Assembly (NCBI GenBank): GCA_037447655.1
Contig: JBBHKE010003445.1
Span: forward strand, 9,921-73,920
Length of the DNA stretch: 64,000 bases
DNA from: Zygnema cylindricum
Taxonomy: Eukaryota > Streptophyta > Zygnematophyceae > Zygnematales > Zygnemataceae
Reading direction: 5' to 3'
The position numbers and the translations under genes are program-made. Under the pieces are notes generated by a model that saw only the letters and a list, made by a program, of their open reading frames with translations, had not been told where the DNA came from and searched no databases. Positions 11,573-49,734 of the stretch are shown here, one piece after another. The stretch's first letter is position 1. Each line of letters begins with the position of its first letter.

Positions 11573-13128
<1,556 letters not shown>

Positions 13129-14705: not shown

Positions 14706-14930
14706 TACACCGTGTATCGCTATTAGTGTTAACAATTTTTTCGCCACTTAAAACATATTTTCTCCGTACACACTTGTCCTATTTTCAATTCGAGACCGCC
14801 AATCGGAAGCTCAGAATCTTACCTTTCAATCGCCACCGTCAGATCCACAATCCGACAACTGTGTACAGAGAAAAGATGTATTAAGTGGCAAGAAAAACAT
14901 TAACACTAATAGCGATTCGCGGTATAGTGT
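14706..14930. mobile_element. Small inverted-repeat element (intron-seeding MITE family), intergenic copy
   Basis: The left arm ACACCGTGTATCGCTATTAG, continuing GTGTTAAC, is repeated in inverse form on the right as TTAACACTAATAGCGATTCG followed by CGGTATAG. The interior shows a second inverted pair (CACTTAAAACATATTTTCTC versus the reverse of GATGTATTAAGTGG), so a transcript would fold into a long hairpin. There is no coding capacity. Diverged relatives sit in introns of all three genes of this window. Confidence 0.65.
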
Positions 14931-20200: not shown

Positions 20201-21579
20201 ACAGTTGCCCTCCAGTTGCCTTTTTGGGGTTGGCTCGAAGCCCAGCAACTTTGGCCCAAGGTCTTCAAGTTTCCGGCAGACTGGATTTCCATGTGGAACT
20301 GCCTGCTCCTGGAGAGACCGATAGACTCGCCATTCTCACAGAAGCTCTGGAAGAGCGTAACATGCATTGTTCAGAGACTCTTTTGACCTCCGTAGCTTCC
20401 CGATGTCAAGGATTTGATATTTTGGATATGGAAGTGCTCGTGAATCGGGCCGTACATGCTGGATCTGCAAGGTTGTTGGTACAGTTGTCTGAGATGGGGA
20501 GGGAGAGAGAGGATTGGAAGGCTGGGAATGGACAAAGCAACAGTTTTATACATAAGCGAGAGAGGTTGGAGCTTCTGGAACGTGACTTCAGGAAGGCCGA
20601 AGAAGGTTTTGTACCTGCGGCAATGAGGAGTGTGGTGAATTCAGGGGCAACGGGCCAAGTGGTTACAAAGGGATGGCAAGATGTTGGTGGTCTCTGGGAT
20701 GTTAGGAAAGCTTTACAAGAGATTTTAGAAATGCCTGCGAAGCATTCTCGACTTTTTGCCGGCGCTCCTTTGAGGTTACGGAGTGGAGTTTTGTTATATG
20801 GACCTCCAGGATGTGGCAAAACCCATGTGGTAGGAGCTGCCGCAGCTGCTTGTGGTCTTCGATGTGTGGCCGTAAAAGGACCCGAGTTACTGAATAAGTA
20901 CATAGGAGCCTCGGAACAAGCGGTTCGAGATGTATTTTCAAAGGCTTCTATGGCAGCTCCATGTATTTTGTTTTTCGACGAGTTCGATGCGATTGCCCCG
21001 AAACGAGGACACGACAATACAGGAGTTACGGACCGAGTCGTAAACCAACTCCTCACGGAATTAGACGGTGTGGAGGGACTCACGGGAGTCTTTGTTATTG
21101 CGGCCACTAGTCGTCCAGACTTGATAGACGCAGCCCTGTTACGGCCTGGGAGGCTGGACCGATTGTTGCTTTGCGACTTCCCGAGGGAGGAAGACAGGGT
21201 GGAAATATTGAGGGCTCTTTCGAGGAACCTTCCTATGGCTTCTGACGTAGATTTGAAGGAGGTTGGAAAGATGACAAACGGGTTTAGTGGAGCTGATTTA
21301 CAGGCTTTGCTTGCTGAAGCACAATTGGCAGCGGTACATGCAGTTTTAGAGACGGAAATCGAGATTGAAAAGCACGGTACAGTACATGGAACTGTTTCCG
21401 ATGACTTGAAAACACCGTTAATAACACCTTCAGTTATACAGCAGGCTGTAGAAGCAGCAAGGCCGTCGGTCCCGGAGTTAGAGAGAATGCGACTCGATGC
21501 AATTTATGATTCCTTCCTAAGCAGTAAAACTGCTGGTCCATCTAAGGAGTCGAAGGGGAAACGAGCGACTTTGGCTTAA
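17229..21579 (+). CDS. PEX1: Peroxisome biogenesis protein 1 (PEX1), AAA ATPase, 3 exons, 1248 aa
   Basis: Exons 17229-17648, 17863-19806 and 20197-21579, all joined in phase 0. With PEX6, PEX1 forms the ATPase that pulls ubiquitinated PEX5 receptor from the peroxisomal membrane. Residues 1-140 match the PEX1 N-terminal double-psi-barrel domain (ending DDWEMLELN) and continue into the second N domain in exon 2. The D1 AAA domain (about 670-910) keeps a Walker-B-like VLDDLD near 754, but its P-loop position near 690 reads [10 protein letters not shown], without GK[S/T]. D2 is canonical: GPPGCGKT at about 990, FFDEFD near 1049, SRPD and the RPGRLDR arginine-finger region, then GFSGADLQ. The C-terminus KGKRATLA is the plant PEX1 ending. 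Length is slightly above the Arabidopsis protein (about 1130 aa), mostly from linkers in exon 2. Intron 2 holds an inverted-repeat element. Confidence 0.96.
19861..20057. mobile_element. Inverted-repeat element in PEX1 intron 2
   Basis: The left arm GGTACACCATGGATCGCTAT, then TAGTGTTAATG, is mirrored on the right by AACTCTAATAGTGATACATG, then GTATAG. The interior words GGAGACCTCCAACGGGAAGG and CTCACCTTTC parallel GAGACCGCCAATCGGAAG and CTTACCTTTC in the copy at 14706-14930. The element occupies about half of the 390-bp intron. Confidence 0.65.
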
Positions 21580-25727: not shown

Positions 25728-25737
25728 NNNNNNNNNN
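25728..25737. other. Assembly gap (10 N)
   Basis: Ten N bases. The true length of the missing sequence is unknown; open frames across it are meaningless. Confidence 0.99.
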
Positions 25738-28930: not shown

Positions 28931-30240
28931 TGAAACCATTTTGCTCACTCAAAGAAAGACTCCTGGTGGACGCGAGATACACTATACAACTTAAAATTGT
29001 CAAGGTACACCGCACAATTTTTGCCATTTCATCTTTATTTGTTAGCATTTTTTGTTTTTTGGGGCATATCGTAAGTTTTATAACTGCTTTTTTTTCTAGC
29101 TGAAAACTCATTTAATCATGTACGTTTTTTATGATGTCTGAGGTGCACGGAACATTTTTTGGGGGAAATCATCACTTCGATTTGTTCCACGAAACAAAAT
29201 GGATCTTCACAGCTACTTGTTTTCTCTTGTAGGCAAATAGTTGTAGATTTTTGTAGTTTTTTGAACGCATATTTAGATCCAGTCACAAATTGTGGTTTTT
29301 TAGGCTTTTTTGTTTTTGAATGAAAAAACTTCAAAATGATTTAAGAGGAAAAAAAAGGGATGCTTTTCTATCGATGAATGCATGACAACTCTTGTTTTTG
29401 TAATTTGTCATTTTTTTTTCTATGAAAAAAAATTTTAGTTTTATTTCGTCTATTTTTACTCTGTAATCTGTAATTTAAGCTGTTCATATTATATTTCCTA
29501 CTTGTAAACTTCATTTTTAGTTATGCAAAACATATTAATTACTTGCAAACTCTATTTGTATATTCACATTCTAAATTGCCTTTGGGTAATCTATAATTGT
29601 AGTTTTCCATTATATATTTGTTACATATAAACTATAATGCGAGTTCTATTTCATATTTTCTTTTTTTGTAATGTGTAATTGTATCTCTCCATAACATATT
29701 TCCTAACACTTCTAATCTCTAACATAAAGTCAAACAAGATGCAATTCATTTTATTACGACCTTCCTTTGGACAGAATTATACGAACGCAAACACCAACAA
29801 AATCATATGCATGAAACTCTTACAAACATAATGAGAAAAATACAATTCACGAGAAACACAAATATTAAGCATGCGATTTTTTTGAAACTATTTATAATAG
29901 TATAAAGAATACAAAACAGGAAAAGAATCATTTGTATTTGTTGTTTTAATTGAAATGGATTAAATTTCTTTGTCAAGCCAGAACTATGCTCCATGGTGAA
30001 AACTACAAAGTGATCTAACAACACAATCCTATTTAGATCACAATCCTATCGCTAATTCTGATAGTTATCTTCCCTCACATTTCAAACTTATCTGGCTAAA
30101 ATGATAACACCTAACATAGCATCTAACATAGAATCGCAGCCAAACACTTCCATGAAGTCTATTATCTTTCGTAAAAAACATAGAAATAACCAATGTAATC
30201 TACTTAACCACCATGCCTTTCGTAGAGATCTACAGCTAAG
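28931..30240. other. AT-rich intergenic DNA
   Basis: Strongly AT-rich. At 29460-29720 a loosely repeated phrase (ACATATT...TACTTGYAAACT) recurs four times at irregular 60-90-base spacing and may be a decayed satellite. No gene was found. The last five bases, CTAAG, are the probable target site of the copia element that follows. Confidence 0.4.
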
Positions 30241-31279
30241 TGTTGGAATTTATAAATCTTTATTTCAGTTTATAGGGGTAAAAATAACTTAGGATATTTT
30301 TTCTAGTAATACTTACCTTAATTAGTGTTAGAGTAGCAAAAGGTACAGTAGAGTGTATTGTACTTTTACAGGGATACGTGTTGGCGAAAGAACGTATGCA
30401 GGTTTTTCGGAGTAGCGCCGACAGTCAAGCATACGTGTCAAAAAGTTGACGATGCGATTCACATAATCGGACGAACGGGATCTGTCCCGAGTATTCCGGA
30501 AACATATGATACAGATCGACGGTACCACCGTCAATCGAATCTGTTCCAACGGACGGGATTCACCTGGGACCACAAGCGTGATTCACGAGGGGCCACAAGC
30601 GTGATTCGCGTGGGACCACAAGTGACGAAGCACTCGGGTGCTTCGTACTACACGACCACATTCGGCTGGACTTTAGCGGTCACCGCTGACTAAGCATTTG
30701 GAACGTTTTGTGTACGGTTAGAACGTTTTGTGTACGGTTCAATTTCTGTAAATTTTTGAATAACATTAGTTTGTTGTTTAGTGTGATATAAAATAGTGTT
30801 ATATTAATCAGGTTTTTAGAAAATAGTAATTAGGGTTTTTGAGGTACAGTGACGTACGGGTAGGATGCTTTGTCGTTAGTGAGGATAATAACCGTAGTAA
30901 CGGTTACCCAAGTTAGTGTAGATCAGTAGATACACACAATGAGTATATAAATTAGGACTTAGCCAATTTTGTAGTATCCAGTTTTGGGAATATGATTTTC
31001 TAAGGGCAGTTTTTGGGAAACTTGGCAGTTTTTGGGAAACTTCCATACATCATATCTTATGGTTTACTAGGTCATTTGAGCTGCAATATTGGGAATTGTC
31101 AGTTTTTTTGTATTGTGTATCACTGTATCAAATTTGAAACATATTGGGGTTCTGAGTCATATTTTGTGTCAGCTCAAAGTTGGTTGTTGAGCGTTACTTT
31201 GATAGTTTCTGTTGTTTTTCATGTCTACTTCTACTACTACTGCTAATTCTCCACCTGCAACGGTGGTTGTAGAAAAACA
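30241..31279 (+). repeat. Copia element 1, 5' LTR
   Basis: 1039 bases, TG...CA. Holds a U3 tandem repeat (about 30568-30632: three units of GGACCACAAGCGTGATTC type), a TATA box at 30944-30951, and a short duplication of CAGTTTTTGGGAAACTT near 31002-31043 that the 3' LTR lacks. The gag ATG lies at 31221, 59 bases before the LTR end. An open frame of 111 codons at 30358-30693 is also open in the 3' LTR, but this only reflects LTR duplication. Confidence 0.92.
30944..30951 (+). promoter_or_regulatory. TATA box of copia element 1 LTR
   Basis: TATATAAA in the 5' LTR, about 275 bases before the gag ATG and also present in the 3' LTR copy (about 42502). Transcription would start some 30 bases downstream. 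Confidence 0.6.
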
Positions 31280-32055
31280 GGTTATGGGCCTTTCGTCAAG
31301 AATTCCTATCTTCAATGGCCAAAAGTATGCGTACTGGGCGGCAATGGTTGAATCGTTGTTTGAAACTGCTGACTTATTGGGGGTCTTGGATGGCTCCCTT
31401 GATGAAACAAATCCAACTTGGGCAAAAAAGAATTCAATGGCAAGGAACAATCTAATTCTTTGTTTTTCAGAAAATTTGGTGATGTCCCGACTGAAAATGA
31501 AGAAGGCGAGGGAGATTTGGACATCCCTCAAAACCGCTTTTGAGAAAGCGAATGTTCAAGAGGAGCTTTTGGTGGCTGGAAAAATTTGGGGATACAAATA
31601 CACGGGGGGAACTATGGTTGAGTATTGTGACAATTTTCGTGCACTCATTGATGCTCACTCTTCTGCTGGGGGGTCATCACCTGAGTTTCAACAGGCAGCT
31701 TTGCTTATTAGAGGTCTCCCTAGTAGCATGAAGGGTGTGTCTACTCAATTAAAGAGTCATGATAAAGCTAGCTAGTCATTTCAGTTAGAGTATAATCTTA
31801 TATTGGAGGAAGAAACAAACACTAAACTCCTTGAGGGAGAAGGAAAGGTTGAGGCACTTCCAACAGACTTTGACAAAAGGAATCAGTTTAATCAGAATAG
31901 GACCGAGTTTAACCAGAATCAGAATCAGTATAATCAGAAACAGAATAGGCCATCTACTACTACTTGTTTCTATTGATCTGAAAAGGGTCATGGATACAGG
32001 TACTGTCCTAAATTGAAGAAGGCTAATGAGACAGGTTTATACAGGCCAGGTTGGT
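31221..32055 (+). pseudogene. Copia element 1 gag (broken)
   Basis: The frame opens inside the LTR (MSTSTTTANSPPAT…) and runs through the primer-binding site into the conserved gag core (RIPIFNGQKYAYWAAMVE, later VLDGSLDETNP). A TAG at 31773-31775 interrupts it. Reading on, an Asn/Gln-rich segment leads to a zinc knuckle in which the second cysteine codon has become TGA (CFY-stop-SEKGH…YC). Confidence 0.85.
31280..31290 (+). other. Primer-binding site of copia element 1, half-tRNA-iMet type
   Basis: GGTTATGGGCC follows the LTR end (…AAAACA) with no spacer. It is complementary to the anticodon arm of initiator tRNA-Met (…GGGCCCAUAACC…), as in Drosophila copia, and not to a tRNA 3' end. It lies inside the gag frame, encoding the end of Gln then Val-Met-Gly. 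Confidence 0.8.
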
Positions 32056-33228
32056 AACAGAGTCAGTATCACAGAGGTTTTTCTGGAAACCCTTCTCGTG
32101 GAAATGCTCTTTTTTCAGCTTCTGCAACTGATGCAGATGAGTCTCTCATCTTCAATGAGCAAAAGGAGGCGGATTTATTTGCTATGGCGGCTGCCATGGA
32201 GGGTCCAAAGGATGCGGGATGGATCATGGACACGAGAGCATCTACCCACATGTGTTGGAACAAGGCGGCTTTTACGAATTTGCAGCAAACATCTCCAAAG
32301 AGATGTATCATTGATGGTAGATGTGGGGGGGAAGTCGGTAGAGAGAACCCTTCACAATTTTTTGTATGTTCCAGATTTTAAGAAAAATCTTTTTTCTACA
32401 TCATTAGTGGAGAGCAAAGGCTTTGAAGTTGTTCTGAAAGGAGGGAGACATGTTGTTAGCAAGAAAGACAAAGTTGCAGTAACAGGAACTAGAGATGCTA
32501 GCAAAATGTACCGGATGGACATGGTTGAATATAAAGATAATGATGTTCTCTACTCCAGTGTCGAATCTTATAATGAGTTGTGGCATAAGAGATTAGGACA
32601 CATGAATTATGATAGTCTAAAGAAAATGGTGAACTCGGGAAAAGTTGATGGAGTTTCTCTCACATCTCATCCTATAAAAACATGTGATGGTTGTTCACTA
32701 GGCAAGATTCACAAATTGCCATTTCCACAGGAAACAGACCATAGATCGGAAAAATTTCTGCAGCTCATCCATTCTGATGTTCTCGGTCCTTCACAAGTGG
32801 CTTCGGCTGGAGGTGTCCACTATATGGTCACATTCACAGATGACTACTCGAGGTGCACCAAAGTTTACTTCATGCAACATAAGAGTGAAGTGTTTACTCA
32901 CTTCAAACACTACAAAGCGTGGGCGAAAAAGCTCCATGGGGTTCCAATATTGGCGCTAAGATCGGACAACGGGGGAGAATACACATCAAAGGAATTCGAA
33001 GAATTTCTCCTTCAGGAAGGTATCAGTCACAATCTTACAATTCCATATACACCGGAGCAAAATGGTGTTTCTGAGAGATTAAATAGGACATTGACAGAGA
33101 GTGCTCGGTCTATGCTTGCAGATAAAGGGCTAGATTTGAAATTCTGGGCTGAAGCGCCTAATTGTGCTGTTTATATTAAAAATATAATTGCTTCTAGGTC
33201 TGTTAGCACTACACCTTATGAGCTTTAG
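32026..33228 (+). pseudogene. Copia element 1 protease/integrase (broken)
   Basis: The protease active site reads DTRAST in another frame at about 32230 where copia proteases have DTG/DSGAS. The pre-integrase zinc region follows (ELWHKRLGHMN, then CDGCSLGK), then the integrase core with HSDVLGP, RSDNGGEY and EQNGVSERLNR, covering the D, D and E catalytic positions. Frameshifts lie upstream near 32300, and a TAG at 33226-33228 (after TTPYEL) ends the frame. Confidence 0.9.
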
Positions 33229-33342
33229 ACAGGGGAAAAACCTGATGTTAGTCACTTTAAGATCTTTGGCAGCAAGTGTTTTATTTTAGATACGTCACAG
33301 GATAGATGGAAAATAGAGGCTAAAGGCTTACCTGGGATTTTC

Positions 33343-35363
33343 ATGGGGTATGATGATAATGCGAAAGGATATAGAGTCTTTGTACTTGAGAAACAGAAAG
33401 TGATTATTTCTAGAAATATCCAGATTAAAGATGAACAGGATTCGGTTGACCTTTTTAAAGTGCTAGATCAACCGGCAAAGGAAAAGCAAGAATATGTCAT
33501 TTTTCACCATACGCAGCGAGTTTACTTTCCACCAGCATGTGCACCTCTTCCTTTTGTTCCTCTGGTGCCTTTACAAGATGCTTCACCACAAGCTACACCG
33601 CAGGTGGAAGGAACTACTACACATTCTGTCCCAGATGACGTTACGGGTCAAACTAAACAGAAAAATCAGAGGTTGCCGACAATCTCGACCTCAGAATTTC
33701 CGGGGGGAAAGAGATTTAGCATCCGTCTGCAAGCAAGCTCTCACTTTGTTTTTTCTGCAGCTACAGAGGAACAGCTAACGATCCAGGAGGCCTTCTCATC
33801 ACCTGAGAGAAATCATGGAGCGAGGCGGCAAGCGATGAAATGAAGTCCATTATGGAGGCACAAACATGAGAGTTAGTGGATCTCCCTCCGGGCAGGAAAG
33901 CCATCGGCAGCAAATGGGTATTCAAGGTGAAGCTGAACCCGGACAACACCATCGAAAGGTATAAGGCCCGACTAGTGGCCAAGGGGTATAATCAAAAAGA
34001 AGGTATTGACTTTGAGGAAATCTTCTCCCTAGTTGTTAGATTTCCCACTGTCAGAATTTTGCTAAGTCTAGCGGCTATAGAGAATATGGAAATACATCAG
34101 ATGGATGTTAAAACTGCTTTCTTGCATGGAGAGTTAGAAGAAAAAATTTATATGAAACAACCTGAAATGTATGTTGAAATGGGAAAGGAAGAATTAGTGT
34201 GTAAATTGATGAAATCTTTGTATGGGCTAAAACAAGCCCCGGGTCAGTGGAATCTGAAGTTAGATGAGTTTTTAACAAGGCTAGGTTTTAAGAGAATTAG
34301 CTCAGATCATTCTGTATATGTTCTACAAGGAGAAGATGGGGTAGTTTATATTGCTGTATATGTGGATGATCTATTATTAATAAGTAAGTCAATGGATGAA
34401 ATAAACCGCATTAAAGCGGCTTTAAGGTCTAGGTTCGAGATGAAGGACCTCGATGAGGCCAAATATATTTTAGGAATACAGGTAGAAAGAGACTGATACA
34501 AGAGGCTGATTATGTTGACTCAGAAAGAAGCAATAGGTAACATGCTAGAAAGATTTGAAATGAAAGATGTGAAAGGATCTATAATTCCCATGGAATTTAG
34601 GCACAAAAAGGGAAGGAATTGATACAGATTCAGGCATAATTGTCAGTAAGAGTCTAGAGATATGGGAGGAAGAGTTTATGGCATCAAAGCCATATAGACA
34701 GGTTATTGGAAGTCTTATATATTTTATGAATTGTACGAGACCCGACATTGCGGCAGCTGTGGGAGTCTTGAGTAGAAATCTGCAAAATTCTAAAAGGGCT
34801 GACTGCGAAGCAGCGAAAAGAGTGTTGAGATATCTTGCAGGTACTCAAAATCTCAAGCTTGTTCTCGGAGGAGGAGAGGTGAAAATCCAGACATGGAGCG
34901 ATGCTAGCTATGGGGACATGCCAAGCCGGAAATCTACGACCGGCTTCGTACTGAAGATTGGAGATGGAACTTGCTGTTGGAGTAGCAAATTACAAAAGGT
35001 TACAGCTCGATCCACAATGGAGTCAGAATATGTGGCAGCAGCTTCCGCCCCAAGGAGCTCCTATGGGTCAAGTCCATTCTACAGGAACTTCGGTATATGC
35101 AAACTGGCCCTCAAGCTATATGGTGTGACAACCAAGCTGCCATAGCAATTGCCTCTAACCCCAGCCATCACTTTAAGAGCAAACACATGGATGTTAGACT
35201 TCATTTTGTTAGAGAAAAAGTACTTCCAAAAGTCATTAAATTGTGTTATTTACCAGATGAGAAGATGGTGGCTGACATGTTAACAAAAGCCCTTCCTGCT
35301 CCTAAGTTACAGTTTTGCAGAGATGCTGTTGGACTAAGAGAGGAACTGAGTCTAAAGATTTAG
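33343..35363 (+). pseudogene. Copia element 1 reverse transcriptase/RNase H (broken)
   Basis: Begins with the integrase C-terminal GYDDNAKGYRVF motif. The RT segment at 33876-34496 holds [45 protein letters not shown] and the catalytic YVDDLL. The RNase H region is split over frames to 35363 (WSDASYGDM, STMESEYVAA, DMLTKALP). Stops at 33841 and 34494 and frameshifts near 34610 and 35060 inactivate it. Confidence 0.92.
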
Positions 35364-35368
35364 GGGAG
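35362..35368 (+). other. Polypurine tract of copia element 1
   Basis: AGGGGAG lies immediately before the 3' LTR start TGTTGGAA. The same run precedes the 3' LTR of elements 2 and 3. Confidence 0.8.
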
Positions 35369-35483
35369 TGTTGGAATTTATAAATCTTTATTTCACTTTA
35401 TAGGGGTAAAAATAACTTAGGATATTTTTTCTAGTAATCCTTACCTTAATTAGTGTTAGAGTAGCAAAAGGTACAGTAGAGTG
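35369..35483 (+). repeat. Copia element 1, 3' LTR, left piece
   Basis: Matches the first 115 bases of the 5' LTR and stops at GAGTG, the 5-bp target site of nested element 2. Confidence 0.93.
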
Positions 35484-36529
35484 TGAAACTCTGAGACCTC
35501 TATAAGTCCTCAGAGTGGACAGCTTCCAAGAAGCCTCTATGATAATTCTGACCCCATTGTGTTTCAGCAAAAACAACTGCCACTCTGGCAGATAAAAACT
35601 CTGACCACGTGCAACCCTGTGAAGGCAAGACTCCCCTGAGTCGATAGCAAAAAGAATCTCTAAATTTGCTCCCCTGAGCAATAAGTTATGGAGGGTCAAA
35701 GTTGACCTTTTGTATTGAAGCTCTCTAGGAGAGAGGGTCCTATCTTCTAATTTTTCTAAGTCCTATCTCTCTCACAGACTCTATCTACTGATGTACGGAA
35801 CCAATCAGAATACAGTTCCGTAAGCAAAAGTAGAGCTGCCGGTGTACTTTATGTACCGACATTGTACGACATGGCCTAATGTTCACACGTGGAATATCCG
35901 GATTCGCTCGTTTAATCCTCGGAGATGCAGCGCTCCAATGTAACATCGCCACGTGTCATCCGATGTGGCGATGCCCACAAACCGCTGAATTCTTCTTCCG
36001 CGATCTCGGCGTTAATTTCGGCTGCCGATTAAACTCGCATTTGATCGTAGCCGTAATAAATACATGCGCGATATTTATTTCGCTTACGAAATCAATGCGA
36101 GGTATTGATTTCTTATCCGTACCGCAATTCGTACTTTTACACTACTATATCTATGTATCTCGTTAACATTTATAGTTAAATGATTTATCCTACGTGTACA
36201 TGTTTAAATCATTATCGTACTATATGCTATGTAACACTACTTCTAGACTTAACGGCTAAGGCTACCGGCTATATACTCTTTGACGGCCGGCAGGTACCAA
36301 GATCAAATCCTGTCGCCGGCACATACCTTTTAGTAATTAATCCCTTGACTAATATAAATTTCCCGTAAACCTCAGGATAGCCTAGGTAGCCATGGCTCTA
36401 GCTTCCTCTCCAATTTCTCAGTGATTGCGACAAGTTTGAGAGTTGGAGAGAGAAGTTAGAGGTAGACTGCCTCGGCTTCTTTATTTCTATTCATACCTAG
36501 AAAATACTTAAAAACCATTAATTTCTACA
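35484..36529 (-). repeat. Copia element 2, 3' LTR
   Basis: 1046 bases. In this copy the position of the gag start codon reads ATA on the minus strand, against ATG in the 5' LTR, consistent with a mutation after insertion. Carries a tRNA-like segment at 36252-36322. Confidence 0.93.
36252..36322 (+). other. tRNA-like segment in copia element 2 LTR, antisense to the element
   Basis: GGCTAAGGCTACCGGCTA…GATCAAATCCTGTCGCCGGC resembles the second half of a tRNA with a B-box-like GATCAAATCC. It recurs at 41651-41721 in the other LTR, where the stem CAGG/CCTG around ATCAAAT is intact. Acceptor pairing is poor, so a functional tRNA is unlikely. Confidence 0.35.
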
Positions 36530-36540
36530 CTCCCCTTATT
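36530..36540 (-). other. Polypurine tract of copia element 2
   Basis: On the minus strand AATAAGGGGAG precedes the 3' LTR (TGTAGAAATT). Confidence 0.8.
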
Positions 36541-36542
36541 TT

Positions 36543-38496
36543 CTAGTCAATCTTTAATTTCAGACCACACTTCATCCTGCAGAAAATTAGCTTAGGGGAA
36601 GGCACAGGTTTGGTCATCATATCTGCTACCATATCACTATCTGGTCGGTACTCTAAACTGATTATTTTATTTTCTACTTTTTCTCTAACAAAGTTGAGTC
36701 TGATATCCATGTGTTTGGCTTTAAAGTGATGTTTAGGATTGGCAGAAATAGCAATTGGTGTCTGATTATCACAAAATATTTTTTGCACACCACTCTTAAG
36801 ATGACCAAGTTCACCAAGTAAAGACTTGACCCACATCAATTCTTTTACAGCAGAGCAAGAGGCCATATACTCAGCCTGCATGGTGGACTGAGCAATAACC
36901 TTTTGCTGTTTGCTACTCCAAGAGCAAGCCCCATCACCCACATATAATACATATCCAGAAGTGCATCTCCTCATCGGAGCATCACCATAACTAGCATCAC
37001 TCCAAGTAGTGATGTCAGTATTCTCCCCACCCAAATGCAACCATAGATCCCTAGTTCTTATCAAGTATCTAAGGACTCTCTTAGCTGCCTCCCAATCCCT
37101 CTTAGTGGGAGCATTTAGACTTCTGTTCAGCACTCCTACAGCTGCAGCTAAATCCGGCCGGGTACAATTCATAAAATAGATTAGACTTCCCACTACTTGC
37201 CTGTAAGGAATAGTATGCATGAACTTCTGTTCTTCGAAGATAATTCCTCGTCTAAGACTATGACTCCTTCTTCCTCACTCCCCTCACTTCCCTTCTTCAA
37301 CTCTATTGGAGTTGTACAACTATTAGCTTTATCCATTTGAAATTTTTCAAGCATGTTCCCTATTGCTTCCTTTTGAGTCAATCTTATCATTTTTCTTTTT
37401 CGGTCTCTCTTTACTTGAATTCCCAAAATATATTTTGCTTCCCCCATATCCTTCATTTAAAATCTCCCTTTAAGATCGGTTTTCAGTTTATTAATTTTTT
37501 CCATTGATTTACTTAAAACAAGCAAATCATCAACATAAATTGCAATAAATATAAAACCTTCCTCATCTTCGAAAACATAGATTGAGTGATCTGAGCTGAT
37601 CCGGATATATCCCAAACCGGTAAGAAACTCATCAAGCTTCTTATTCCACTGTCGAGGCGCCTGTTTCAAACCATAAAGAGATTTAATCAGCAGTTATACC
37701 TACTCTCCTCTCCTTCTTCCACAAACCCTTCGGGTTGTCGCATGAAGATCTCCTCTTCCAATTCTCCATGCAAAAAGGTTGTTTTGATGTCCATCTGGTG
37801 CACTTCCATGTCTTCCGCTGCTGCTAGGCTGAGAAGTATGCGGACGGAGGGAAATCTGACCACCGGGGCAAAGGTTTCCTCGTAGTCAATTCCCTCCTTT
37901 TGTGTAAATCCCTTTGCCACTAGTCGGGCCTTGTAGCGCTCGATTGTGTAATCTGGGTTCAATTTTAATTTGAAAACCCACTTACAACCGATTGGTTTTC
38001 GGTTAGGTGGACAATCCACCTGCTCCCAAGCATCGGCTGCCATAATTGAGGCCATCTCCTCATTGATGGCTATCTTCCACCGATTTTTTTCTGGACAAGT
38101 CATCGCCTCTCCATAAGTTTGAGGTTCATCTTGATGAGATAGTTTAGTTACCTTGTTATTAATCTGTTTTTCTTGCAGTCTTTTGCTACTTCTCCTTCCC
38201 CCCTTCAAATCAGAGGCCGAAATAGATGGTTCTCGTGGATTCTTTCCAACAAACTCGGCTTCTCCCCTATCCTTTGATTCTGAATCAATTTCCACCACGT
38301 CTTCCGCTTCGGGTAGAGTTGTCACTGGAGTTTCCACAGCCAAGTCCTTTTCAGTCTGATTTGTACCTGCAAGAATGTCATCTTCTCTAAAACCTGGATA
38401 GTTAGGAAGCCCAATGTCATCGGAATTTTCTGACTCAAATCTGATTTTTAATGACTTTGCATATTTGAAGGGATCCACAGACTTTCTTTCATCCAT
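36543..38496 (-). pseudogene. Copia element 2 reverse transcriptase/RNase H (broken)
   Basis: RT motifs on the minus strand: [34 protein letters not shown] and RQPEGFVEEG in 37687-38496; YVDDLLVLSKS in 37457-37669; ILGIQVKRD in 37193-37456; then WSDASYGDAP, STMQAEYMASCSAV and DMMTKPVP of RNase H in 36543-37220. Three or so frameshifts or stops separate the pieces. Confidence 0.93.
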
Positions 38497-38553
38497 AACT
38501 ACTAGATGTTTTACAAAGATTATATCTTCCGTTTTTAGATCATAAACTCTATA

Positions 38554-39750
38554 TCATTTAACATCCTCATCATATCCTAATAAGTATCCCGATTTTCGTT
38601 TAGGATCTAGCTTACAATTAGAATGATCTGTATCTAGACTAAATACTTGACTGTCAAAAACCTTTAAGTGAGATATGTCTGGTTTCCGGCTTGTCCATCT
38701 CTCATAAGGTGTTTGATCTTTTATAGCTGAAGTAAGAACTCTATTTTTGAGGTAATTAGCATAGTTCATTGCTTCTGCCCAAAACCTTTTTCCTATCTTC
38801 TTATCTGACAACATACTTCTAGCACTATCACTTAGTGTTCTATTTAACCTTTCAGCTACCCCATTCTGTTCCGGGTTTTTGTGGAACTGTCTTTTGGTGT
38901 TGGACCCCATCTTCCCTCAGAAAATCCTCAAACTGGTTAGAAGTATACTCTCCACCATTGTCACTCCTTATTCTCTTGATTGGAGTTTCATGGAGTTTTT
39001 GGCTCCATGCTTTATATTGTCTAAAACAATCCTGAGCGTCGGACTTGTTTTTCAAAAAATACACTCGGGAATACCGAGACCAATCATCAGTGATAGTCAT
39101 CATAAATCTCTTCCCCCCCCGGTGAGGGTACTCTAGCCGGTCCCCAAATATCTGTGTGTACTTGATCTAGAATTTATTCTCCTTTATAGGTGGCTGTTTT
39201 AGAAAAGGGTAATCAGAGTGTTTTACCTTGAGCACACCCACTCTTATCACTTATATTATCACTCTCACTAAACTTAATCCCTTCCACCACTCCCATCTTT
39301 TTCATCTCTCTTAACTTGTCTAGATTCACATGCCCAAGCCTCTTATGCCACATCATAATATCATGAACACCAACATAATAAAGTTTTTTCGTTTCATTAC
39401 TTAAGATCAGCCTAAACATCCCATGGTTACCTTTCTCAGCAATGAAATAGACATCCTCCTCAAAACTAGCAGTAAAGACTCCTTCCCTAGTGGTAGTGAA
39501 AAAACCCTTATCATCTAATATAGATGTAGAAATAAGGTTTTTGTTCAGCTACGGAATAAACAATACATCGGAGAATGTTAATATGGATGTCTTTCCTTCT
39601 ACTAACACTTTCACATCTACCAATCCTACAAGAGTAGTGGTGACTATCCTCCCATCCCCGTACTCTATCTCTACGGTGGGAATCTTTCTTATCTTATTGA
39701 ACAGGTGCCTATCCTTACACATGTGCATGGAGGCACCTGAATCTATAATC
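38554..39750 (-). pseudogene. Copia element 2 protease/integrase (broken)
   Basis: The protease signature DSGASMHMC appears directly after the stop that ends the gag frame (about 39735). The pre-integrase zinc region (MMWHKRLGHVN … CAQGK) is at 39213-39419, the integrase core (RSDNGGEYTSNQFE) at 38852-39103 and EQNGVAERLNRTL at 38554-38910. A frameshift lies between the last two and stops lie at 39750 and near 39555. Confidence 0.9.
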
Positions 39751-40901
39751 TAGCCTGCTTCACCTTTCAATCCACCGTAAACACATTTCTGCCTTCGTGG
39801 AATTTTAACCTCATTTTTCGCCTCCAACTCCTCATCCAAAAGGAGCTCATCGTCCTCGTCCTCGGATTCTGCCTCAAGTACCTGTGTGACAAGGGCCTTT
39901 TTCTTTCTTCTCGGGGTACCACCGGTCTGCCCCTCCTTTAACCGAAGCTTGGTTAGATTAGTGCACTCTGCCATATAGTGCCCCGGTTTGTTACAAAAAT
40001 GACATAAACCTTTGGGAGCCCTTGGTTCGAACTCGTCAACCTCATTATTCTGCTCCCTCCCCCTATAGATTCCGACCGGTTTCCGTGAATCCTTGTTCCT
40101 CCAATCGGTCGCTGTTGCCAAGGCTTGGCCACTCTTTCCTCCCCTTCGGATCTCAATCGTATTCTCTCGAACGAGAATCATCCCTACCACTGAGTTCCAT
40201 ATCCACCTTGAGTCCGGCAAGTCCTGCACACGGTTGACTATGTTCTCGAACTCATCAGGTAACTTCATCAGTAAACAGTTAACCTTTTCTTTTTCACTAA
40301 AAACTTTTCCCGCACTCTCTAGCTCCATGAAGAGTGTAGCAAACTCATTGCAAAAATCCAACATATTTCCCCCTTTGTATACATACTCGTTAACTTTCTG
40401 ATCAGCCAACTGTTGTTGCTGAATCGTACCACTTCGGTACATCTCTATGAGAGCCATCCAAAGATCGGATGCCCTTTCTACCTGCAAATGAGGACATGCA
40501 AGTCCTTGAGTGAGATGGCGTAGGATGAAGTGCTTTGCCGCCATATTGTTGAAGTCCCAGGTTTCAGTATCATTCTCCTCGTTCCTCCGAATAGGTGACA
40601 TGAATGCTGAACCATTTGTTATTGGTGTGGTCGCCTCCTTCTCCTTTCCTTTGTCCACCACCTCTCCTTCTTTTGTTTCCACCGTTGAAGGTCAATCCTC
40701 TTTCCTCGTGAATCTGCTTCCTCTACACCCTGGAGGAATTCCAAGACTTGATGGACGCCCCAATTGTCCACTCACTATCCCCCAAAACCTTTTTTCGCAT
40801 AGAGCTCCTTTCATCATACTTTCCCATTATATGAAGCCTGTTCCATTAAAGATTGGTACCCTAGAGGGTGGGCCCATAACCTGAAACTCTGAGACCTCCA
40901 T
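39751..40901 (-). pseudogene. Copia element 2 gag
   Basis: The start codon (minus strand ATG at 40901-40899) lies inside the 5' LTR, 20 bases from its end; the frame runs MEVSEFQ then through the primer-binding site (VMGP). Premature stops follow within 30 codons, then a clean frame of 310 codons (40682-39750) carries the gag core and the zinc knuckle CHFCNKPGHYMAEC (CX2CX4HX4C). Confidence 0.9.
40867..40881 (-). other. Primer-binding site of copia element 2, half-tRNA-iMet type
   Basis: The plus strand reads GGTGGGCCCATAACC, identical over 15 bases to the anticodon arm of plant initiator tRNA-Met, so the element's sense strand is its complement. It abuts the 5' LTR without spacer and lies inside the gag frame. 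Confidence 0.85.
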
Positions 40902-41928
40902 AAGTCCTCAGAGTGGACAGCTTCCGAGAAGCCTCTAGGATAATCCTCACCCCTTTGTGTTTCAGCAAAAAAAACTGCCACCCTGGCAGATAAAAACTCT
41001 GACCACCTGCACCCCTGTGAAGGGAGGACTCCCCTGAGTCGATAGCAAAAAGAATCTTTGAATTTGCTCCCCTGAGCAATAAGTTATGGAGGGTCAAAGT
41101 TGACCTTTTGTATAGAAGTTCTCTGAGAGAGAGGGTCCTATCTTCTAATTTTTCTAAGTCCTATCTCTCTCACAGACTCTATCTACTGATGTACGAAACC
41201 AATCAAAATATAGTTCCGTACGCAAATGTACAGCTGCCGGTGTACTTTATGTACGGACATTGTACGACATGGCCTAAATGTCCACACGTGGAATGTCCGG
41301 ACTCGCTCCTTTAATCCTCGGAGATGACGCGCTCCAATGTAACAAAGCCACGTGTCATCCGATGTGGCGATGCCCACAAACCGCCGAATTCTTCTTCCGC
41401 GATCTCGGCGCTAATTCCGGCCGTCCGATTAAACTCGCATTTGATCGTAGCCGTAATAAATACATGCGCGGTATTTGTTTCGCTACGAAATCAATGCGCG
41501 GTATTGATTTCTTATCCGTACCGCAATTCGTACTTTTACACTACCATATCTATGTATCCCGTTAACAGTTATAGTTAAATGATTTATCCTACGTGTACAT
41601 GTTTAAATCATTATCGTACTATATACTATGTAAGACTACTTCTAGACTTAACGGCTAAGGCTACCGGCTATCTACTCTCTGACGGCCGGCAGGTACCAGG
41701 ATCAAATCCTGTCGCCGGCACATACCTTTTAGTAATTAATCCCTTGACTAATATAAATTTCCCGTAAACCTCAGGATAGCCTAGGTAGCCATGGCTCTAG
41801 CTTCCTCTCCAATTTCTCAGTGACTGCGACAAGTTTGAGAGTTGGAGAGAGAAGTTAGAGGTAGACTGCCTCGGCTTCTTTATTTCTATTCAGACCTAGA
41901 AAATACTTAAAAACCATTAATTTCTACA
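40882..41928 (-). repeat. Copia element 2, 5' LTR
   Basis: 1047 bases, with a TATA-like TATACAAAA (minus strand, 41114-41106). It starts TGTAGAAATT and ends GAGTTTCA on the minus strand. A tRNA-like segment lies at 41651-41721 on the plus strand. Confidence 0.93.
41651..41721 (+). other. tRNA-like segment in copia element 2 5' LTR, antisense to the element
   Basis: Better preserved copy of the segment at 36252. CAGG-ATCAAAT-CCTG forms a T-arm-like stem-loop, followed by GTCGCCGGCA. It lies on the strand opposite to element transcription. Confidence 0.35.
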
Positions 41929-41933
41929 GAGTG

Positions 41934-42818
41934 TATTGTACTTTTACAAGGACACGTGTTGGCGAAAGAACGTAGGCAGGTTTTTCGGAGTAGCGCCGAC
42001 AGTCAAGCATACGTGTCAAAAAGTTGACGATGCGATTCACATAATCGGACGAACGGGATCTGTCCCGAGTATTCCGGAAACATATGATACAGATCGACGG
42101 TACCACCGTCAATCAAATCTGTTCCAACGGACGGGATTCACTTGGGACCACAAGCGTGATTCACGAGGGACCACAAGCGTGATTCGCGTGGGACCACATG
42201 TGACGAAGCACTCAGGTGCTTCGTACTACACGACCACATTCGGTTGGACTTTAGCGGTCACCGCTGACTAAGCATTTGGAACGTTTTGTGTACGGTTCAA
42301 TTTCTGTAAATTTTTTAATAACATTAGTTTGTCGTTTAGTGTGATATATAATAGTGTTATATCAATCAGGTTTTTAGAAAATAGTAATTAGGGTTTTTGA
42401 GGTACAGTGACGTACGGGTAGGATGCTTTGTCGTTAGTGAGGATAATAACCGTAGTAACGGTTACCCGAGTTAGTGTAGATCAGTAGATACACACAATGA
42501 GTATATAAATTAGGACTTAGCCAATTTTGTAGTATCCAGTTTTGGGAATATGATTTTCTAAGGGCAGTTTTTGGGAAACTTCCAGATATCATATCTTTTG
42601 GTTTACTGGGTCATTTGGACTACAATTTTAGAAATTTTCAGTTTACTGTATTGTGTATCACTGTATCAAATTTGAAACATATTGGGGTTCTGAGTCATAT
42701 TTTGTGTCAGTTCAAAGTTGGCTGTTGAGTAGGTACTTTGATAGTTTTTGCTGTTTTTCATGTCTACTTCTACTACTACTGCTGGTTCTCCGCCTGCAAC
42801 GGTGGTTGTAGAACAACA
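41934..42818 (+). repeat. Copia element 1, 3' LTR, right piece
   Basis: Resumes the LTR at TATTGTACTTTTAC after the duplicated GAGTG and ends GTAGAACAACA. Contains the LTR-borne gag ATG (42760) with the same 59-base coding tail as the 5' LTR. Confidence 0.93.
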
Positions 42819-43006
42819 CTAAAAAGTCGCTAGTTCTTTGGCTTCCTCGTTTGTGTATGCATCAATCTCCTCTCTGTCAACCTCTTGCTCGTCGTTTCGA
42901 GGAGTACTAGGTGGAGTATCTTCGTCTATGTGACGAACTCGCCCATCTTTCATCAAGTTGTGCAAAGTGCACACATTCATGATAACATTAACGACATGCT
43001 CCGTGT
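42819..43006 (-). pseudogene. PIF/Harbinger-type transposase, C-terminal fragment
   Basis: The minus strand reads EHVVNVIMNVCTLHNLMKDG followed by an acidic tail ending KELATF and a stop at 42819-42821. 'I-x-x-x-C-x-LHN' is the usual end of Harbinger DDE transposases. It is cut on its N-terminal side by the LTR of element 3 and on the other side by element 1, so two independent copia insertions bracket it. Confidence 0.6.
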
Positions 43007-43218
43007 TGTTGAAATAAGTGGTTTTTGGCATTTTCTAGGTCTAAAAATATTAGCGGAAATAGATAAAGAAAATGCAGGCAACCAGCCTCCTTCTCTTCTC
43101 TCTTGCCACCATACTTGTTGTAGTCACTGGAGGAGAGAGAGAGAGCCATGGAGCCATGGCTGCCTCCACCCCATATGAAGGACTAAAGAGTGACTTGAGT
43201 CACTCTCAACAAAAGGTT

Positions 43219-43279
43219 GAGTTCGGCAGGACTCGAACCCACGACCGAAAGAGTGCGGCGTAGCCATTAGCTCTAACTA
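43219..43279 (-). other. tRNA-like segment in copia element 3 5' LTR, antisense to the element
   Basis: On the minus strand it reads GTTAGAGCTAATGGCTACG … GTGGGTTCGAGTCCTGC. GGTTCGAGTCC is a perfect RNA polymerase III B-box and forms the T loop of a GTGGG/CCTGC stem. The anticodon arm is weak and the acceptor stem does not pair well. A second copy is at 47739-47799. Confidence 0.45.
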
Positions 43280-43792
43280 GTCTGTCATAGAAGTCTGTTA
43301 GGAGATATAGGGTTTGATAAGTATTTAAACTATCGTATAATATTGAAATCATTTAACTAAAATATAGACGAATGAACATAGAACTAGTTAAGGTTTAGTG
43401 CGAAAGTCATTTTGCACAAAAAAAATAAATCGGACAGTTGTTTCAACGGTCGACATTTAATGTCGAATTTAATCCGACGGCGCACATTATCGCCGAGATC
43501 GCGGAATGGTCACTTTGGCTTTTATGAACGTGGCATGACCTGGCGCCGCGTGAAAGGATGACACTCGGTCGCGGGAATTTTGGAGAATATACGAACAAGT
43601 GGAAAAGTGACACGCGTCCACTTAGTAGCTTTGTCGTACACCGACCGTACAGAAAGGACATCGACCGTAGTACCTTTTCTGTACTTTACAGTTAAATGAT
43701 TGGATCGTACTTTAGTAGATAGGGGTTGTGAGAGAGGTTTAGGACTTAGGAAATTTAGGTAGGTAGTCACCTCTCTCTCTAAGAGAGCTTTG

Positions 43793-43799
43793 TATAAAT
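43793..43799 (+). promoter_or_regulatory. TATA box of copia element 3 LTR
   Basis: TATAAAT about 200 bases before the gag ATG, in the position equivalent to the TATA-like box of element 2. Confidence 0.55.
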
Positions 43800-43993
43800 T
43801 GGCAATTTTGCCGGTTCATAACTTATCGGATGGTTTTCCGTTTTCACTAATTCTTTTTGCTACGAACTCAGGGGAGTCCTGGCTGCACATGGGTGCAGTC
43901 AAACTGTCATTTTGCCTTCTTCTACAGCAGTGGTTGTGGCTTGAAGTGGGTTAGTTAAATATCACCTAGAGGCTTCCTGTATTCTGTGGTCCA

Positions 43994-45050
43994 ATGGAGG
44001 ACACAGAATTGCAGGTTATGGGCCCACACTTTAGGGTGCCCACTTTCAATGGATCTGGGTTCATCTATTGGGAAGCTATGATGATGGGAGCTTTGTGTTG
44101 AAAACGACACTGGGGTATCGTCAGTGGACAAGTGAAACGTCCACCTTCGGGAAACGGATTGGAGGGTAAGTTTCTGAACAACGGTTTCCTCAGCGAAGGA
44201 GGCAAATGATGGGGAGAGCAGTGTGTCCGAAAAGGGGAAAGGGAAGGAGACACCCCTTACTCCTATTGCGACAGTATCAGGAGCGGCGACGATGAAATCC
44301 GCGGAGAACGATACTCAAATGTGGGAGGATGTAAACATGGTTGCCAAGAACTTCATTTTGAGGCACCTCACTCAAGCTTTCGCCACCCCTCATCTTCAGC
44401 TTTACAAGGTTGAGGAGTTGTGGGTGAGTTTGGTGGAGATTTATAGAGCTGGAACTATTCAAGAGCTCCAGTTGGCTGAGCAAAAGCTAGTGAGTTACAC
44501 TTATAAAGGAGGAAAGATGTTAGATTACTTTAATGATCTTTCTTGATTGTATATGGAGATGGAAAGTGCTTGGTGGACAGGTACAATGAAAATGAAAGTT
44601 AACAACCTTACCATGAAGTTACGAGATGAGTACGAGAACATAGTGTACCGAGTACAGGAAAATGCCTGATAGTTAATGGAAATGGAACACAGTGGCTAGG
44701 ATGATACTTGTGCACGAAAACACAATGGAGATTAGGAGAGGAGGAAAGAGCATTCAAGCTCTAGCAGGAGGAGGGGACCGATGGGGGAAGGACCCGAAGA
44801 AACCGTACAAAGGGGAAAGAGATCATTCCGGAGGACCGAGGACTCCAAAAGGCTTTAGTCATTTTTGCAAAAAGTCGAGACCCTTCATCGCAGATTATGC
44901 AAGCTGTTGGAGCTGAGGGTTTAAGAGAACCGTGGAGGGGGTTCTTTCGGAGGGAAGAAAAATGCACTTGTGGTTACAAAAGTGACAGGAGAAATTGAGG
45001 ATGAGTCTTCTAAGGAGGATGGGGAGCTTCTTCTTGACGGGAGTCTAAGT
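43994..45050 (+). pseudogene. Copia element 3 gag (broken)
   Basis: The frame opens in the LTR with MEDTELQ, reads through the primer-binding site and shows the core RVPTFNGSGFIYWEAMM before a stop at 44098. Later parts are recognisable in shifted frames: ENDTQMWEDVNMVAKNFILR at 44283-44360, the zinc-knuckle region near 44850-44900 with cysteines lost, and an acidic segment ending LLLDGS near 45046. Confidence 0.8.
44014..44027 (+). other. Primer-binding site of copia element 3, half-tRNA-iMet type
   Basis: GGTTATGGGCCCAC abuts the LTR end; 14 bases are complementary to the plant initiator tRNA-Met anticodon arm. In the gag frame it encodes Val-Met-Gly-Pro. Confidence 0.85.
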
Positions 45051-47527: not shown

Positions 47528-48169
47528 TTTTGAAATAAATAGTTTCACGTATTTCTAGGTTCAAAATAATTAGCGGAAACAGATAAAGAAAATGCAGGCA
47601 ACCTGCCTCCATCTCTTCTCTCTTGCCTCCATACTTGTTGTAATCATTGAAAGAGAGAGAGAGAGCGATGGAGCCATGGCTGCCTCAGCTCCATAAGAAG
47701 GACTAAAGAGTGACTTAAGTCACTCTCAACAAAAGGTTGAGTCCGACAGGACTCGAACCCCCGACCGGCAGAGTGCGGCGTAGCCGTTAGCTCTAACCAG
47801 ACTGTCATAGAAGTCCGTTAGGAGATATAGGGTTTGATAAGTATCTAAACTATTGTATAATATTGAAACCATTTGATTGAAATATGGACGAATGAACATA
47901 GAACTTGTTAAGGTTTAGTGCGAACGTCATTTCGCACGAAACAAATGAATCGGACATTTGTTTCAACGGTCGACATTTAATGTCGGACTTAATCTGACGG
48001 CGCACATTATCGCCAAGATCGCGGAATGGTTACTTTGGCTTTTATGGACGTGGCATGACCTGGCGCCGCGTGGAAGGATGACATTCGGTCGCGGGAATTC
48101 AAGAGAATATACGAACGAGTGGAAAAGTGACACGCGTCCACTCAGTAGCCTTGTCGTACACCGGCCGTA
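47528..48169 (+). repeat. Copia element 3, 3' LTR (truncated)
   Basis: Preceded by the polypurine run AGGGGAG (47521-47527). It follows the 5' LTR to about 48169 (GTACACCGGCCGTACC), then changes to an A run. The first base pair of the LTR has mutated from TG to TT. Includes tRNA-like 47739-47799 and palindrome GAGTGACTTAAGTCACTC at 47707-47724. Confidence 0.88.
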
Positions 48170-49734
48170 CCAAAAAAAAAAATTTGCTTTACATTTTTTT
48201 ACGTTCGATTCTAGTTGATTTTGATTGGTTATTCGTTTATGGGTTACCATTTTAGAAAATTTCGTATAGTACGGATGAATCATTCGAGATGCGACTTCAT
48301 GTTTTTTCAAAGTCGGATTTCTGAATTCCGAAAAGGGTTCCCGGAAAAGAAGATGACTTACCACAGTTGTCAAGTTTTGACGCACTTGACCGTACGTTTT
48401 TGTCTGTAGGCACGCTCCAAATCGTATATTTTGTCCGTCGCTACGCCCCAAAAAGGTTGACAGCCGAGCAGTCGGTCAGTTTAGCGCCTCTGTTTTTGTT
48501 TTTTTGCGAAATGAATGGTACGGGATCATTCATTTCCTCATCTCATTCATCATCCATTTCCGGTGTGAATGCAGCAAGTGCTCTGAAGGCACATCAAACA
48601 ATTTTTAAACGTTTTAACTAATGATAATCGTGGACGACCATCGTCGATTGCTTTTTTCACTACGGATGTGTTAAACTCGAATTGACGGGCGTACTTTTTT
48701 TAGTTTTTTACGTGATATGTTTTTTCATTTTGTTCTCATATCGTACATGCAAAATGAATCCTTAACTATGTTCCATATATTTTGTGAAGTTTTGCTAATT
48801 TCACATCGATATTTTGCTGATGTTTACTTCACGATTAGTGTTAAACAGTTAAAGCAGCATTCAATATAAACTTTACTCATTCGCGGTCTGTCACGTGTCT
48901 CGTTTATGAAGTACGATTACAGTTTTGGCTCAAGAAAATCCACACTCGAACTAACGTTGCTAACTCGCCGTAAGGTGACTTCCCGACCAGTTGTTATTTT
49001 TTTTTTTTTTTACTCCCCTTTGTACCCGGATGGTTTTTCTATCGCAAGTTTTGCAATAAAGTTTCACTTTCCAGTAAAATCTAAAACTAGTCGGCGGCGG
49101 TCTTTATGGGTGTTCTTCCTGCCGCCTTTCTCGCTCTGATTTCTGAACCCCGCCGCACTCCTCCGACCGACGCGGCATATTTTGGAGGATACGGTACACG
49201 AGGTTCCGTACTTCACGGAGTGGATCTCGACCTTCCGACTAGTTAGATCCTGACCGTTCATACTTCATGACTGCAAAAGCCCGATTTGATGTCATAGTTT
49301 TTGAACGGCAAATTTGTCCAGAAGCCGCCAGCCTCCAGTACAGAATTCTGCGAAACAATTCGTGAGTGCTCTGATTGGCTGCACGCCTCCATACATTTTG
49401 GAAAGCTGTACTTTTGCTTCAACGCTGTAAGATGTACGTCGGCTTGAAAGGAAAAAGTTACACCGTCTATCATTATTACGCGTCAATGGCACTATATTGG
49501 TGCCCCTAAATTTTTCCACTCGAACCAAAAATACTGTTAGCGACATAATTTTTATTGATCGATGCTAATTGATCTAACGGTTCAGAATCAGCCACGTTAT
49601 ATGACACTGAATTAGAGTTTGTAACAGTAATATAGACCCCAGGGTAATAAAGCCGTGACGCTAGTAACGATACACGGTGTAGTGAGAGGTATAAGGGGGG
49701 GGAGGGAAGGGCGAGGTAGCAAGCGAAATCGTCT
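48170..49734. other. Intergenic DNA upstream of the helicase gene
   Basis: Mostly unassigned. On the minus strand around 48690-48550 a frame reads KKYARQFEFNTSVVKKAIDD, which has the look of a helix-turn-helix start of a transposase-like protein, but it ends after about 45 codons. Near 49660 the word GTAACGATACACGGTGTAG is an end of the inverted-repeat family found in introns here. The promoter of the helicase gene should lie toward 49734. Confidence 0.35.

What the first reader, a model, noticed from the sequence alone, without database searches (positions are those of the whole stretch)
31280..44027. Three copia elements carry a half-tRNA (initiator Met anticodon arm) primer-binding site
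Seen: GGTTATGGGCC(CAC) directly follows the 5' LTR in element 1 (31280-31290), element 2 (minus strand, 40881-40867) and element 3 (44014-44027), with no spacer and with no TGG-type site matching a tRNA 3' end. Known: Drosophila copia primes with a 5' fragment of tRNA-iMet cut in the anticodon loop, and its site begins with the same bases; most plant copia elements use the 3' end of intact tRNA-iMet. Inference: this lineage uses cleaved tRNA-iMet as primer in a plant genome, which requires an endonucleolytic tRNA cut in virus-like particles. Element 2 matches the plant tRNA over 15 bases, element 3 over 14 and element 1 over 11.
Basis: partly seen in the sequence, partly recalled or inferred. 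Interest (0 to 1): 0.86.

Follow-up and report, generated by a model that had tools for sequence, protein, structure and literature searches.

The report
Algal retrotransposons primed by half a tRNA
Three jumping genes in this green-alga DNA carry a start site for copying that fits a cut piece of the initiator tRNA instead of its usual end; this trick is already known from fruit flies, yeast and some plants, but here its signature sequence occurs thousands of times in one genome.

Summary
All three copia elements carry GGTTATGGGCC(CAC) directly behind the 5' LTR at the stated coordinates; it pairs with nt 39 backwards of the genome's own tRNA-iMet over 11, 15 and 14 nt. The host genome (353 Mb; best named relative of one window gene is Closterium, so probably a streptophyte alga) holds GGTTATGGGCCCA 7254 times against 11 for the reversed control. 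Of 24 sites examined, 16 have a downstream LTR copy; 15 of these end CA, and 9 of the 16 pairs have a clear exact 5-bp target duplication. The motif is shared by LTR groups without detectable DNA similarity, one apparently without gag. A primer ending at tRNA nt 39, a half-tRNA, is the best reading; the cut itself is inferred. The mechanism is not new to green plants: Neumann et al. 2019 report half tRNA-Met sites in Osser, Bryco and part of Gymco-II. So this is a new member of a known kind; its lineage was not determined. Added here: its abundance, coexistence with 414 intact-iMet-type sites, and a site read in frame inside gag (Q-V-M-G), with an ATG in the LTR.

The parts
30241..31279 (+). 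5' LTR of element 1; its end holds an ATG in frame with gag
   Evidence: 30350-31279 pairs with 41928-42818 at 91.6%, 30239-30356 with 35367-35484 at 98.3%; borders; frame
31280..31290 (+). primer-binding site of element 1, 11 nt complementary to tRNA-iMet nt 39-29
   Evidence: family form CAGGTTATGGGCCTT at 267 places in the genome, control 0
31281..31772 (+). gag reading frame of element 1 through the site
   Evidence: Retrotran_gag_2, E 5.8e-13
32026..33228 (+). pre-integrase and integrase piece of element 1
   Evidence: gag_pre-integrs and rve
35369..35483 (+). first part of the 3' LTR of element 1, interrupted by element 2
35484..41928 (-). element 2, inserted in the 3' LTR of element 1, 5-bp target duplication GAGTG at 35479-35483 and 41929-41933
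   Evidence: LTR pair 94.9%, borders, duplication
40867..40881 (-). primer-binding site of element 2, 15 nt complementary to tRNA-iMet
39750..40682 (-). gag piece of element 2 (the frame through the site is broken after 17 codons)
   Evidence: Retrotran_gag_2, E 1.5e-15
37687..38496 (-). reverse-transcriptase piece of element 2
   Evidence: RVT_2, E 2.1e-39
41934..42818 (+). rest of the 3' LTR of element 1
   Evidence: 91.6% to the 5' LTR
43007..44013 (+). 5' LTR of element 3
   Evidence: 43009-43650 pairs with 47530-48170 at 90.2%; end placed by relatives L009 and L021
44014..44027 (+). primer-binding site of element 3, 14 nt complementary to tRNA-iMet
47528..48170 (+). truncated 3' LTR of element 3

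Best explanation
These are Ty1/copia LTR retrotransposons whose minus-strand DNA is primed by the 5' part of tRNA-iMet, cut after nucleotide 39 in the 3' side of the anticodon stem, as in Drosophila copia and yeast Ty5. Shown: site position, complementarity to the genome's own tRNA-iMet, LTR borders, the same site in unrelated LTR groups. Inferred: that the tRNA is cut, that the cut leaves a 3'-OH, and by what nuclease. An enzyme that leaves 3'-OH ends (an RNase P-type activity, as PMC5371799 states for Ty5) fits better than an RNase T2-type one, which would cut in the loop and leave a cyclic phosphate (recalled, not tested). The site also codes for gag residues V-M-G, because gag most likely starts at or before the ATG inside the site.
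For: GGTTATGGGCCCA 7254 against 11 reversed; CAGGTTATGGGCCCA 6237 against 9, so 86% are preceded by the LTR-type CA. Of 24 distinct sites in 20 fetched stretches and the window, 16 have a downstream copy of the LTR end, 15 of these end CA, and the script found an exact 5-bp duplication before TG in 10 of 16 (L011 among them doubtful) (LTR pairs). 3'-end match at most 3 nt in 25 of 25, complementarity into the LTR in 0 of 25. Six tRNA-Met(CAT) genes carry GTGGGCCCATAACCCAC. By blastn linkage the LTR parts of the 25 sites fall in five groups and the internal parts in four, yet share the site. L014/L007 has only 12 open codons behind the site, LTRs 98.0% alike and duplication TCACC, so coding does not explain the motif there.
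Against: No cDNA, RNA or particle data. 8 of 24 sites had no downstream LTR end in the stretch fetched. The element 1 family pairs over only 11 nt. The 25 sites were chosen by the motif. Two element junctions outside the 25, L035 and L036, were found by a 17-mer search and do continue the complementarity 3 nt into the LTR. The two bases before the site are not CA in 2 of the 25 (L022, L025 minus). A genome count of silent-site variants (CAGGTNATGGGNCC) did not complete.
Confidence: 0.9

Rival explanations
1. The site is a conserved stretch of gag coding sequence (Q-V-M-G) and the primer is something else.
For: The frame CAG GTT ATG GGC is open into gag in el1, members of the el2/el3 group and L025; ATGGA-N10-TTKCAGGTTATGGGC occurs 3908 times, control 5, with a stop at codon 5 in 4 of the 100 listed.
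Against: A group with only 12 open codons behind the site (L007/L014) keeps all 14 nt; flanking DNA differs between groups while the 11-14 nt do not (sites chosen by the motif); the motif abuts the LTR end.
Confidence: 0.04
2. The primer is the intact 3' end of another tRNA, paired from the TGG five bases behind the LTR.
For: TGGGCCCAC starts at +5.
Against: The iMet 3' end matches only 3 nt; element 1 keeps only TGGGCC; the shared block starts at +0, not at +5. Other tRNA 3' ends were not searched.
Confidence: 0.03
3. Self-priming by a fold of the element's own RNA (Tf1, TAR type).
For: Predicted in plant copia of the TAR lineage (PMC6317226, passages).
Against: Apart from the three sites themselves there is no match on either strand of the window, even with one mismatch, so the window LTRs hold no complement of 10 of 11 nt.
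Confidence: 0.02

Closest known systems
Half tRNA-Met copia lineages of green plants (Osser, Bryco, part of Gymco-II; Neumann et al. 2019, PMC6317226)
   Same: Copia elements of Viridiplantae with a site complementary to half-molecule tRNA-Met (passages).
   Different: Lineage of the present elements not determined. The main text has no hit for charophyt or Klebsormidium; other charophyte names and the supplements were not searched. The motif is very abundant here.
Drosophila copia
   Same: Half-tRNA primer (PMC5371799, passage); that it is tRNA-iMet cut after nt 39 without a spacer is recalled.
   Different: In copia gag starts behind the site (recalled); here gag reads through it.
Saccharomyces Ty5
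   Same: Anticodon arm of tRNA-iMet as primer (PMC5371799 and PMC10886601, passages; the Ty5 paper itself was not read).
   Different: Host, and no genetic test here.
Fungal Copia and Helenus elements with anticodon-loop sites (PMC10886601, passages)
   Same: Internal tRNA priming site; iMet is the commonest in fungal Helenus.
   Different: The short partners seen here (L013, L025, L014) have LTRs of about 1.1-1.4 kb, not TRIM size.

Membership tests
Ty1/copia (Pseudoviridae) | gag, then integrase before reverse transcriptase | tested here: met
   L016 pieces in this order: Retrotran_gag_2, rve, RVT_2. In the window: el1 gag and rve, el2 gag and RVT_2; el3 not scanned, but 73-77% alike in DNA to el2 over 1.9 and 0.6 kb
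Ty1/copia (Pseudoviridae) | LTRs TG...CA with 5-bp target duplication | tested here: met
   exact 5-bp duplication in 10 of 16 pairs by script, L011 doubtful
Half-tRNA (hemivirus-type) copia | site at the LTR end complementary to the tRNA-iMet anticodon arm, not to its 3' end | tested here: met
   25 of 25 sites, chosen by the motif, pair over 11-16 nt and match the 3' end over at most 3 nt
Half-tRNA (hemivirus-type) copia | cleaved tRNA used as primer | not testable with these tools
   needs cDNA or particle RNA
Osser / Bryco / Gymco-II lineages | position in RT, RH, INT trees | not tested

The most novel reading that the evidence does not exclude
The primer site doubles as the start region of gag: its AUG is in frame, and the gag start motif (such as R-V-P-I-F-N-G) follows within a few codons with no other AUG between. 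A tRNA-iMet half annealed there would block translation of that RNA and commit it to reverse transcription: a switch between translation and copying made from the initiator tRNA itself.
Probability: 0.12. Interest if true: 0.6.

Novelty: new member of a known kind. Interest (0 to 1): 0.33.

Why it matters
It shows a half-tRNA-iMet site as the commoner of the two iMet types in what is probably a streptophyte alga (7254 13-mers, against 414 intact-type 14-mers), and offers many copies, some young (LTRs above 99% alike in L009, L013, L025, L028), for working out how such a primer is made where RNase P is the protein-only kind (recalled for plants; not checked for this host). Pipelines that look only for tRNA 3' ends would miss these sites.

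Tried and rejected
Window-only statistics were not decisive (4 of 100 shuffles reach 3), so the whole genome was used. A second (bipartite) box complementary to the tRNA half was looked for and not found in a consistent place (7-nt hits at varying positions; one 9-nt hit in el2). A TAA between the LTR ATG and the site in the young copy L009 looked like evidence that gag starts at the site's own ATG; rejected, because its 3' LTR has GAA there, so the stop probably arose after insertion. L041, where the site follows a different LTR stretch, looks like a rearranged copy joined at a shared CAGG. A scan of the held sequence (without L001-L008 and L029-L037) for CA followed by the 14-mer with 1-4 mismatches gave 3 hits: one decayed junction (L013), el1, and one that looks like chance. 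The silent-site search (CAGGTNATGGGNCC) did not complete. Paper searches answered. Searches on Closterium, hemivirus/Osser and half-molecule tRNA failed, so I make no claim that the gag overlap or the Closterium case is absent from print.

Full report
Observation. The three sites exist as described. Self-comparison of the window and borders give: element 1 at 30241-42818, with element 2 (35484-41928, minus strand) inserted in its 3' LTR with a 5-bp duplication GAGTG; element 3 from 43007 to about 48170 with a truncated 3' LTR. In each, GGTTATGGGCC starts on the base after the terminal CA of the 5' LTR.

Host. The PEX1-like gene at 20191-21579 has its most similar named hit in Closterium sp. 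Yama58-4: 82% identity, but over 49% of the query only, so it ranks 19th by E-value; the other hits that bear a plant name have 50-57%. I call the host Closterium-like on this one gene.

Genome-wide. GGTTATGGGCCCA: 3675 + 3579 = 7254 exact, reversed control 11. CAGGTTATGGGCCCA: 6237, control 9. The element 1 form CAGGTTATGGGCCTT: 267, control 0; of 4 loci fetched, 3 (L040, L042, L043) show its LTR-located protein start or its remains, the fourth (L041) is rearranged. The site for intact tRNA-iMet, TGGTATCRRAGCCA: 414, control 8; 2 of these were fetched: L039 has the site at the end of a repeat of at least 1.1 kb (99.9% alike), L038 at the end of a 101-bp repeat (92%). Both types of site therefore occur. 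The counts compare a 13-mer with a 14-mer and are not counts of intact elements.

Copies. Stretches of up to 10 kb were taken at 20 of the first 22 places listed (C4 and C11 left out). Together with the window they hold 24 distinct sites. 16 have a downstream copy of the LTR end; 15 of these end in CA (L027 ends GA). The script reports an exact 5-bp duplication before TG in 10 of 16; L011 is doubtful because no purine tract precedes its 3' repeat. Not met: L010, L018, and near misses el1 (CTAAG/CTAAA) and L025 (AGGTC/ATGTC). In L016 and L027 the downstream LTR is followed by another site (GGTTA), i.e. tandem elements sharing an LTR. 8 of 24 had no downstream LTR end in the stretch. LTR identities run from 84.6% (L018, 175 nt only) to 99.8% (L009), so some insertions are recent.

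tRNA. GTGGGCCCATAACCCAC occurs at 9 places: six tRNA-Met(CAT) genes, one degenerate iMet-like sequence (L033) and two element junctions (L035, L036). Against the tRNA, 25 sites (3 of the window, 22 of loci; chosen by the 11-mer) pair from nt 39 backwards over 11 to 16 nt; none continues into the LTR; none matches the tRNA 3' end over more than 3 nt. L035 and L036, outside the 25 and found by a pattern that demands it, do continue 3 nt. The 14-nt core equals the anticodon stem-loop without the last three stem bases. The primer 3' end is thus set at nt 39, inside the stem, which is where copia's primer ends (recalled).

Coding. In the gag-bearing groups seen the frame reads CAG GTT ATG GGC. An ATG lies 7 codons (many of the el2/el3 group), 9 (L018, L025) or 20 (el1) before GTT in the LTR; in some copies (such as L001, L002, L020) that frame is closed by a stop. 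3908 places match ATGGA-N10-TTKCAGGTTATGGGC (control 5); 4 of the 100 listed have a stop at codon 5. Long open frames through the site exist (L009 1442 and L016 1482 codons). Whether the LTR ATG or the ATG in the site is the start is open. Short elements with a gag frame only (L013, L025: Retrotran_gag_2) or without an open gag frame at the site (L014; not scanned with Pfam) share the site, as expected of non-autonomous partners.

Known or new. Neumann et al. 2019 (passages read) found half-molecule tRNA sites in about 2% of plant LTR elements, half tRNA-Met in Osser, Bryco and part of Gymco-II. Fungal Copia and Helenus elements have anticodon-loop sites too (PMC10886601, passages). Copia and Ty5 are the classical cases (PMC5371799, passages). 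The finding is a real, strong instance in what is probably a streptophyte alga, not a new mechanism. The gag overlap has a precedent in Ty1, whose gag also starts in the LTR (recalled).

Noticed in passing
window 35479-41933: Element 2 is nested in the 3' LTR of element 1, minus strand, with target duplication GAGTG.
   Followed up: yes
L016 and L027: Tandem copies in which the downstream LTR is directly followed by another primer site, i.e. elements sharing an LTR.
   Followed up: partly
L013, L025, L014: Short elements (internal part about 1.9-2 kb, LTRs 1.06-1.39 kb, 98.0-99.5% alike) with a gag frame only or none open at the site: likely non-autonomous partners.
   Followed up: partly
L038 position 1211: A short element with a roughly 101-bp repeat and an intact-tRNA-iMet site; listed places 285-286 bp apart on C103, C315 and C346 may be tandem arrays of it.
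   Followed up: partly
genome: Most listed intact-type sites read CGGAG, CAGAG or CAAAG, which match the three acceptor-stem forms of the tRNA-iMet genes seen; two listed places read CGAAG. The pattern allowed only these four forms.
   Followed up: no
window 25728-25737: A run of 10 N, an assembly gap, near repeats at 24.6-25.3 kb.
   Followed up: no
window 14706-14926: A 221-bp imperfect palindrome (73%).
   Followed up: no
window 13007-13126: A pure (AT)60 run.
   Followed up: no
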